64,000 nucleotides of DNA from Candidatus Zixiibacteriota bacterium (GTDB lineage Bacteria > Zixibacteria > MSB-5A5 > GN15 > FEB-12). The notes beneath the pieces are model-generated. The model was not told where the DNA came from. It searched no databases and saw only the letters and a list, made by a program, of their open reading frames with translations. A program made the translations under genes and the position numbers. The stretch covers positions 1-64,000 of the forward strand of contig JBFMDV010000020.1 in NCBI GenBank assembly GCA_040753875.1, given 5' to 3'. Below are positions 26,479 to 27,620 of this stretch, piece by piece; positions within the stretch are counted from its first letter, which is position 1, and every line of letters starts with the position of its first letter.

Positions 26479-27102
26479 TCACAAGTGCCGGAGCTTTTTC
26501 TTGAGCAGCTCCCGGGCGCGGAATATCCGCGCTTTGACGGTCCCGACAGGTATATCCAGTAGGTCGGCAATTTCCTCATACGATTTATCGTCCTTGTGCC
26601 GGTAGACGATGACTTCCCGGTACTTCTTCGGCAGCGAATCGATAGCCTCCTCGATGCTGAAACTCTGTTCTTTTCGCTCCAGGTCCCGTTCGGGATGGTA
26701 CGAGTAGTCCGGCACCTCGATCTCGACCTCGCCATCGTGTGTCTCGAGGGGACGGTCCAGCGACAGCGCCTGGATTCTCTTCTTGCGCAGGAAGTCGATC
26801 GAGGCGTTGGCTGCTATTTTGTACAGCCAGGTGGAAAACCGGTATTCCGACCGGTAGGTCGCCAGTGCCGAAAACGCCTTCATGAACGTCTCCTGGACAA
26901 GGTCGCTGGCCGTCTCCTCGTTTCGAACGATCTTGTTGATAATATGAAAGATCGCCGGGCGATGTTTTTCCATCAACGAGGTATAGGCTTTCTGACTTCC
27001 GCCCAGGGCCTCTTCAATCAAAATGCCGTCGTCGTCCTGCAAGCAGGTCCTTCTTTGCTCTACGTTCACAGGCGTGGCCTGTTTCAATTGGTTGGGAGCC
27101 AT
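26479..27102 (-). CDS. ECF-type (group 4) RNA polymerase sigma factor
   Basis: About 207 residues. Sigma region 2 covers about 25-95 (LMEKHRPAIFHIINKIVRNEETASDLVQETFMKAFSAL, FSTWLYKIAANASIDFLRKKR). Region 4 covers about 140-200 (AIDSLPKKYREVIVYRHKDDKSYEEIADLLDIPVGTVKARIFRARELLKKKL). This is a standard RpoE-like ECF factor, which directs transcription from special promoters. The ATG at 27102 has no clear Shine-Dalgarno sequence, and an in-frame TTG at 27159 is the only longer option. Three envelope genes follow on the same strand with gaps of 25, 35 and 76 bases. No anti-sigma gene is next to it, so how it is held inactive is unclear. Confidence 0.92.
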   Translation of the reverse strand: MAPNQLKQATPVNVEQRRTCLQDDDGILIEEALGGSQKAYTSLMEKHRPAIFHIINKIVRNEETASDLVQETFMKAFSALATYRSEYRFSTWLYKIAANASIDFLRKKRIQALSLDRPLETHDGEVEIEVPDYSYHPERDLERKEQSFSIEEAIDSLPKKYREVIVYRHKDDKSYEEIADLLDIPVGTVKARIFRARELLKKKLRHL

Positions 27103-27256
27103 AATAATAGGAAGCGGGTGGAGAGCACAACAACTGTTTGTGCGCGCTGATCTCGACAATGCAGGAACAGAACACGATACGGAAAATTTGCGCGACTGAC
27201 CGGCGGAAGCCGCGACACACAGCCTCCGCCGACAACAACATCCGGACGTTCAGCCC

Positions 27257-27436
27257 TCAGTCGCCAAAGCAAGGCCCGACAATTCTGCAGTTATTGATCG
27301 GGCAACAGACCTTGAGCTGTCCGTTCACACAATAGGCTATGCAAGGGGGACCCGCCTTGACAGATGTGATCATCAGCCCAATTACGAAACTGAGCGCGAA
27401 CGCTGCCACTAAAACGACACTCATAGACTTACGCAT
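27257..27436 (-). CDS. Secreted six-cysteine micro-peptide (59 residues)
   Basis: A short gene with the best ribosome-binding site in the area: AGGAGGTG lies 8 bases before the ATG at 27436. The product begins with a signal peptide (MRKSMSVVLVAAFALSFVIG and on to VKA) and ends in a mature part of about 31 residues. That part has six cysteines in the order C-x3-C-x7-C-C-x4-C-x5-C (GPPCIAYC, LKVCCPINNC, GPC) and ends FGD. A central CC pair in a six-cysteine peptide is the knottin-like framework, and three disulfides could form after export. No family was recognised. The gene is 154 bases upstream of the ECF sigma factor on the same strand. It could be a metallo-peptide, a bacteriocin-like peptide or a target of that sigma factor; none is proven. 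Confidence 0.75.
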   Translation of the reverse strand: MRKSMSVVLVAAFALSFVIGLMITSVKAGPPCIAYCVNGQLKVCCPINNCRIVGPCFGD

Positions 27437-27620
27437 GTTGTTTCACCTCCTTTCATGCGTGTGAAAGCGCTGAGGTACAATGAAGTCGTATTCGTTGAGA
27501 AAGCCCATCCACTTGAAAATCTGTACGCACGACTGATGACTTTGGTTTGACGCCGGGAGAGATTCTGTTCGCAGAGCGGGCAACCTGATCCCTCCGCCTG
27601 CACGCTACGCGATATAGATA

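What the first reader, a model, noticed from the sequence alone, without database searches (positions are those of the whole stretch)
27257..27436. Six-cysteine secreted micro-peptide with a knottin-like C-C-CC-C-C framework
Seen: an excellent AGGAGGTG site, a signal peptide and a mature 31-residue part with spacing C-x3-C-x7-CC-x4-C-x5-C. Under 60 codons, it is easily missed by gene callers. Known: that cysteine order is typical of inhibitor-cystine-knot peptides, mostly from eukaryotes. Inference: a disulfide-rich extracellular peptide, signal or metal binder, possibly linked to the adjacent ECF sigma factor.
Basis: partly seen in the sequence, partly recalled or inferred. Interest (0 to 1): 0.65.

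Follow-up and report, generated by a model that had tools for sequence, protein, structure and literature searches.

The report
Exported six-cysteine mini-protein, thioredoxin-linked family
A real 59-residue gene, encoding a small exported protein stapled by disulfide bonds, belongs to a large uncatalogued family in a little-known bacterial phylum, and most members sit beside a gene for a dedicated membrane-anchored thioredoxin that probably folds them.

Summary
The ORF is real, on the minus strand at 27257-27436, as described. It is not an isolated curiosity. A profile finds confident relatives (E<1e-5) in about 20 of 132 genomes of Candidatus Zixiibacteriota, up to 10 per genome and often in tandem arrays. 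No Pfam, NCBIfam or PDB family matches. Selection acts on the protein: mature-part dN/dS is 0.02-0.15 in most measurable ortholog pairs, Cys codons change synonymously, 67 of 70 members have an even Cys count, and ribosome-binding sites are unusually strong. The main discovery lies outside the window: many members are encoded beside a membrane-anchored ResA/TlpA/MauD-like thioredoxin. In an independent test, 26 of 35 such thioredoxins had an adjacent exported Cys-rich mini-protein, against 1 of 105 control genes (p=1e-19), including peptides unrelated to the window's. The window copy is a solo paralogue; its genome has two complete modules elsewhere. The knottin label is unsupported: the cysteine order fits, but no sequence or fold match exists, and the AF2 model (pLDDT 87) is three-stranded. 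The sigma-factor link is rejected: orthologues in 54/54 family genomes, no peptide at 29 other loci. Most likely: a Sec-exported disulfide mini-protein folded by a dedicated thioredoxin; target unknown.

The parts
27257..27436 (-). Gene for the six-cysteine mini-protein (59 aa, ATG start)
   Evidence: relatives
27353..27436 (-). Signal peptide, residues 1-28 (K/R start, hydrophobic core, VKA cleavage motif)
   Evidence: sequence; the same leader type throughout alignment A1
27260..27352 (-). Mature part, residues 29-59: GPPCIAYCVNGQLKVCCPINNCRIVGPCFGD, C-x3-C-x7-CC-x4-C-x5-C
   Evidence: AF2 model pLDDT 87 with three strands; cysteines invariant in A6
27444..27451 (-). Shine-Dalgarno AGGAGGTG, 7 nt before the start codon
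   Evidence: GGAGG in 53 of 70 family members against 35 of 242 larger genes on a generous count
27198..27233 (-). Strong GC-rich hairpin between the peptide gene and the sigma-factor gene (possible terminator or 3' stabiliser, no immediate U run)
   Evidence: -36.5 kcal/mol, z -2.64
26479..27102 (-). ECF sigma factor (Sigma70_r2/r4), neighbour only and not part of the system
   Evidence: Pfam; no linkage in relatives

Best explanation
The gene makes a Sec-exported mini-protein. It has a very strong ribosome-binding site (shown in sequence), is carried out of the cytoplasm by its signal peptide (inferred from sequence) and is cut after VKA. Its six cysteines are oxidised to three disulfides (inferred from even Cys counts, conserved cysteines and the model). 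The result is a small three-stranded sheet scaffold (predicted). For much of the family this folding is catalysed by a membrane-anchored, extracytoplasmic ResA/TlpA/MauD-like thioredoxin encoded next door (adjacency shown, catalysis inferred). The window copy is a solo paralogue that would use thioredoxins encoded elsewhere, at G000:C25 or G000:C38 (inferred). The folded scaffold presumably acts by binding something in the cell envelope or outside the cell, with different paralogues presenting different loop residues on the same cysteine frame (inference; target unknown).
For: Family and conservation. Even Cys count in 67 of 70 and a nearly fixed C-x3-C-x7-CC frame in the core group. Mature dN/dS 0.02-0.15 in most measurable ortholog pairs, with synonymous Cys codon changes. 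The own-genome paralogue C15 and its G037 orthologue (different genera) keep the mature part (pN 0.05) while the leader diverged (pN 0.38). Thioredoxin adjacency found from peptides. Adjacency confirmed from independent thioredoxin loci, 26/35 against 1/105 (p 1.3e-19): with two more by inspection. In the window's own genome only the two module-type thioredoxins among eight AhpC-TSA matches have a Cys-rich neighbour. Thioredoxin clades track peptide class (5 changes against 12.6 in shuffles). Thioredoxin identity (CxxC, ResA-like). AF2 models. Strong SDs.
Against: The window copy itself has no thioredoxin neighbour, nor do many other members. A few members have odd Cys counts. No expression, proteomic or biochemical data. 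The direction of the thioredoxin (oxidase, isomerase or reductase) cannot be read from sequence; ResA and TlpA are reductases (established knowledge).
Confidence: 0.62

Rival explanations
1. The peptide is a redox or metal partner of the thioredoxin rather than a disulfide-locked effector: its cysteines cycle between thiol and disulfide, or hold copper/zinc, in the periplasm.
For: Tight genetic pairing with a ResA/TlpA-like protein, a class that includes reductases; CC and CxxxC motifs; a conserved mature sequence.
Against: Cysteine counts are almost always even with diverse spacings; residues between cysteines are largely hydrophobic/aromatic and confidently modelled as a sheet; no shared metal motif across the peptide classes paired with these thioredoxins.
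Confidence: 0.17
2. The peptides are secreted antimicrobials or competition toxins (bacteriocin-like), kept as a diversified arsenal.
For: Tandem arrays and up to 10 divergent paralogues per genome, patchy distribution, strong ribosome-binding sites, conserved leader with divergent mature parts between paralogues.
Against: No recurrent immunity gene or dedicated exporter beside them; orthologues are under strong purifying selection; no outer-membrane export signal seen.
Confidence: 0.15
3. It is a true inhibitor-cystine-knot (knottin) peptide, as first proposed.
For: The C-C-CC-C-C order. The one clear paired loss, of C1 and C4 in L064_9624 and L069_5378, fits the 1-4 disulfide that a knottin needs.
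Against: No credible PDB sequence match; no knottin in the 50 best fold matches; the model is a three-stranded sheet with CC inside strand 2. The 1-4 link is also expected from the sheet itself.
Confidence: 0.08
4. A peptide signal sensed through, or controlled by, the adjacent ECF sigma factor.
For: The two genes lie about 155 bp apart on the same strand in the window.
Against: Sigma orthologues in 54 of 54 family genomes, peptide at none of 29 other loci examined; a hairpin between the genes; other family members have other neighbours.
Confidence: 0.03

Closest known systems
ResA/TlpA/MauD membrane-anchored thioredoxins (for the partner gene)
   Same: N-terminal membrane anchor, thioredoxin-like domain, CxxC and conserved Pro; best PDB matches are ResA chains and ResA-like proteins; weak NCBIfam matches to ResA in 13 and MauD in 4 of 17.
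   Different: The NCBIfam matches shown are far below cut-off. The Trp before CxxC typical of ResA/TlpA is replaced, as in GCxPC. Neighbours are Cys-rich mini-proteins, not cytochrome c maturation or methylamine dehydrogenase genes.
Inhibitor-cystine-knot peptides (knottins)
   Same: Same cysteine order C-C-CC-C-C; small, exported, disulfide-rich.
   Different: No sequence or fold match; modelled as a simple three-stranded sheet; disulfide map unknown.
Disulfide-containing bacterial products with dedicated oxidoreductases, such as sublancin with BdbA/BdbB, and the methylamine dehydrogenase small subunit with MauD (from memory, not tested)
   Same: A small disulfide-rich exported product paired with its own thiol-disulfide enzyme.
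   Different: No glycosyltransferase, immunity gene or peptidase-ABC exporter recurs here; many unrelated peptide classes share one thioredoxin superfamily.
Pfam DUF6520
   Same: Best of several weak Pfam hits: one array member matches at E 0.0026, 18.6 bits, over residues 1-45, mostly the leader.
   Different: Below the 25.4-bit cut-off; the window peptide and ten other module peptides do not match.

Membership tests
Inhibitor-cystine-knot (knottin) | Six cysteines in the order C-C-CC-C-C | tested here: met
Inhibitor-cystine-knot (knottin) | Disulfides 1-4, 2-5, 3-6 forming a knot | not testable with these tools
   Only C1-C4 gets indirect support, from one joint loss
Inhibitor-cystine-knot (knottin) | Sequence similarity to a known knottin | tested here: not met
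   no match
Inhibitor-cystine-knot (knottin) | Fold similarity to a known knottin | tested here: inconclusive
   no match below E 1 and no knottin in the top 50, but Foldseek is weak at 31 residues
ResA/TlpA/MauD-like thioredoxins (partner gene) | Membrane anchor, thioredoxin-like domain, CxxC and conserved Pro | tested here: met
   (both Cys and the Pro invariant in 17)
ResA (as named by NCBIfam) | Score above the curated cut-off | tested here: not met
   scored 19.0 bits against a cut-off of 170 for the member shown; best E among members only 1.9e-10
DUF6520 | Score above the Pfam gathering cut-off | tested here: not met
Zixiibacteriota Cys-rich mini-protein family (this work) | Signal peptide, strong SD, C-x3-C-x7-CC-xn-C-xm-C mature part | tested here: met
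Thioredoxin plus Cys-rich mini-protein module (this work) | Module-type thioredoxin gene adjacent on the same strand | tested here: not met
   the window copy is solo; complete modules at G000:C25 and G000:C38

The most novel reading that the evidence does not exclude
Zixiibacteriota carry a phylum-wide, diversifying arsenal of disulfide-locked mini-proteins, each class co-inherited with its own dedicated thioredoxin foldase: a bacterial parallel to venom or plant-defence cysteine-rich peptide families, on scaffolds not yet in any structure database.
Probability: 0.3. Interest if true: 0.8.

Novelty: new variant of a known kind. Interest (0 to 1): 0.62.

Why it matters
Disulfide-rich mini-proteins of this diversity are best known from animals and plants. 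A bacterial phylum with many such families, each paired with its own thioredoxin, would give new stable scaffolds, a natural set of enzyme-substrate pairs for studying oxidative folding, and an entry point into the biology of uncultured bacteria. It also shows that genes under 60 codons in such genomes can be read reliably through their genomic partner.

Tried and rejected
ECF sigma link: rejected. Knottin by sequence: no credible PDB match. Pfam and NCBIfam for the peptides: only weak matches, all below cut-off and lying mostly on the signal peptide. Phages, plasmids and viral contigs: no relatives. Literature: nothing relevant found. Recurrent neighbours other than the thioredoxin: S9 peptidase, DUF1028 and FKBP proteins recur mainly in one genus. 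Simple sigma-70 promoter scan: nothing found. Chance ORF: excluded by homology and selection.

Full report
1. Observation. The ORF is on the minus strand at 27257-27436, 59 aa, ATG start, with AGGAGGTG 7 nt upstream. The cysteine spacing is exactly as reported. The N-terminus has a basic start, a hydrophobic core and a VKA cleavage motif; the mature part would be GPPCIAYCVNGQLKVCCPINNCRIVGPCFGD.

2. It is a real gene of a real family. In its own genome there are paralogues at E 6e-11 (C31) and 3e-6 (C15). In 98 relatives, clear homologues appear in several genera, families and orders. A 20-row profile finds matches at E<=0.01 in 31 of 132 genomes of the phylum, of which about 20 are confident (E<1e-5), with up to 10 matches each in G041, G046 and G057. 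The phylum is Candidatus Zixiibacteriota, named by the one public record recovered. I collected 70 members. They run in tandem arrays in several genomes, for example four in a row in G074 and seven around one thioredoxin in G041.

3. Selection and chemistry. Ortholog pairs have low dN/dS in the mature part (0.02-0.15 in most measurable pairs, up to 0.40 in one), and conserved Cys codons switch between TGC and TGT. For the C15 paralogue and its G037 orthologue the mature part is nearly fixed (pN 0.05, pS 0.38) while the leader has diverged (pN 0.38). Of 70 members, 67 have an even number of mature cysteines (4, 6, 8 or 10), and the core group keeps C-x3-C-x7-CC with variable later loops. This is what disulfide-bonded proteins should look like. 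In the pair L064_9624 / L069_5378 the first and fourth cysteines are missing together, suggesting a C1-C4 bond; this is probably one evolutionary event. The ribosome-binding sites are unusually strong: GGAGG in 53 of 70 members and GGAGGTGA in 32, against 35 and 2 of 242 larger genes on a generous count.

4. The partner. Comparing neighbours across 40 loci showed one recurrent gene, a roughly 200-aa protein with an N-terminal membrane anchor and CxxC, beside peptide genes in 15 genomes. It is ResA/TlpA/MauD-like: the best PDB matches are ResA chains and ResA-like proteins near E 1e-15, NCBIfam matches are weak, and both active-site cysteines and the Pro are invariant in the 17 aligned. I then reversed the test. 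Searching the phylum with this thioredoxin gave 89 genomes. From 39 further loci (40 fetched, one known peptide locus dropped), 35 thioredoxins could be scored automatically and 26 had a same-strand exported Cys-rich ORF within 250 bp, against 1 of 105 genes in control loci (Fisher p 1.3e-19). Inspection added two more loci; of the misses, several lie at contig ends, one is a classical TlpA and one has lost its first active-site Cys. Many of these peptides are unrelated in mature sequence to the window's. In the window's genome, of eight AhpC-TSA matches only the two module-type thioredoxins have such a neighbour. Thioredoxin clades follow peptide class (5 changes against 12.6 in shuffles), which fits co-inheritance of the two genes. 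The 17 thioredoxins used to build the profile were found through peptides and are not counted in the test.

5. The window copy. It has no thioredoxin beside it, like many other members. The neighbouring ECF sigma factor is a conserved gene: a match in all 54 family genomes (mostly 68-86% identical), none of the 29 other loci examined carrying the peptide. A strong hairpin lies between the two genes. The sigma link is therefore coincidental or private to this genome.

6. Structure. AF2 on the mature part with one relative gives pLDDT 87 and three strands (5-9, 12-17, 21-27); a relative folded alone gives the same three-strand layout. Coordinates were not provided, so disulfide distances could not be measured. 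Foldseek against the PDB gives nothing below E 1 and no knottin in the top 50. With a turn at N10-G11, residues 4 and 17 (C1 and C4) would face each other, in line with their joint loss; this is my inference.

7. Mechanism. Best reading: Sec export, cleavage, oxidation to three disulfides assisted by a dedicated membrane-anchored thioredoxin, then action as a stable binding scaffold in the envelope or outside. Shown: the gene, family, conservation, partner adjacency. Inferred: export, disulfides, catalysis, function. Because these bacteria are probably diderm (established relationship to the FCB group, from memory; a sorting-domain-like C-terminus was seen in L077), 'secreted' may mean periplasmic. 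Rivals are a redox or metal partner of the thioredoxin, an antimicrobial arsenal, a true knottin, and a sigma-linked signal.

8. Novelty. No significant Pfam, NCBIfam, PDB, phage, plasmid or viral match and no relevant paper found in the open library searched. Pairing of a disulfide-rich product with its own oxidoreductase is known in principle; a phylum-wide set of diverse mini-protein classes sharing one thioredoxin superfamily appears new. Other phyla could not be searched, so the restriction to this phylum is not shown.

Noticed in passing
L074 4496-7326, L097 867-2777, L111 3355-4918: Arrays of longer (90-100 aa) exported peptides, mostly with eight cysteines and a shared CSxxTGPxC-type motif, beside module thioredoxins; a separate class from the window's.
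   Followed up: partly
L125 2218-2400, L127 3137-3328, L129 3125-3319, L135 3136-3324, L126 171-365: Another class, very short peptides of the form CCWVMVCT..PPIVCWEVCxPCP, beside one thioredoxin clade; the window's genome has one (G000:C38).
   Followed up: partly
L061, L064, L069, L070: In one genus most of these arrays also hold an S9 prolyl oligopeptidase, a DUF1028-TPR protein and an FKBP isomerase, possibly a processing and folding set.
   Followed up: partly
L107 2627-3193: A module-type thioredoxin with the first active-site Cys lost (SPHC) and no Cys-rich neighbour, suggesting joint decay.
   Followed up: no
L060, L082, L083, L085, L086, L087: An eight-cysteine branch of the window's family, with two extra cysteines at matching places, consistent with one added disulfide.
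   Followed up: partly
window 27198-27233: Very stable hairpin after the peptide gene without an immediate U run; role (terminator or mRNA stabiliser) unknown.
   Followed up: partly
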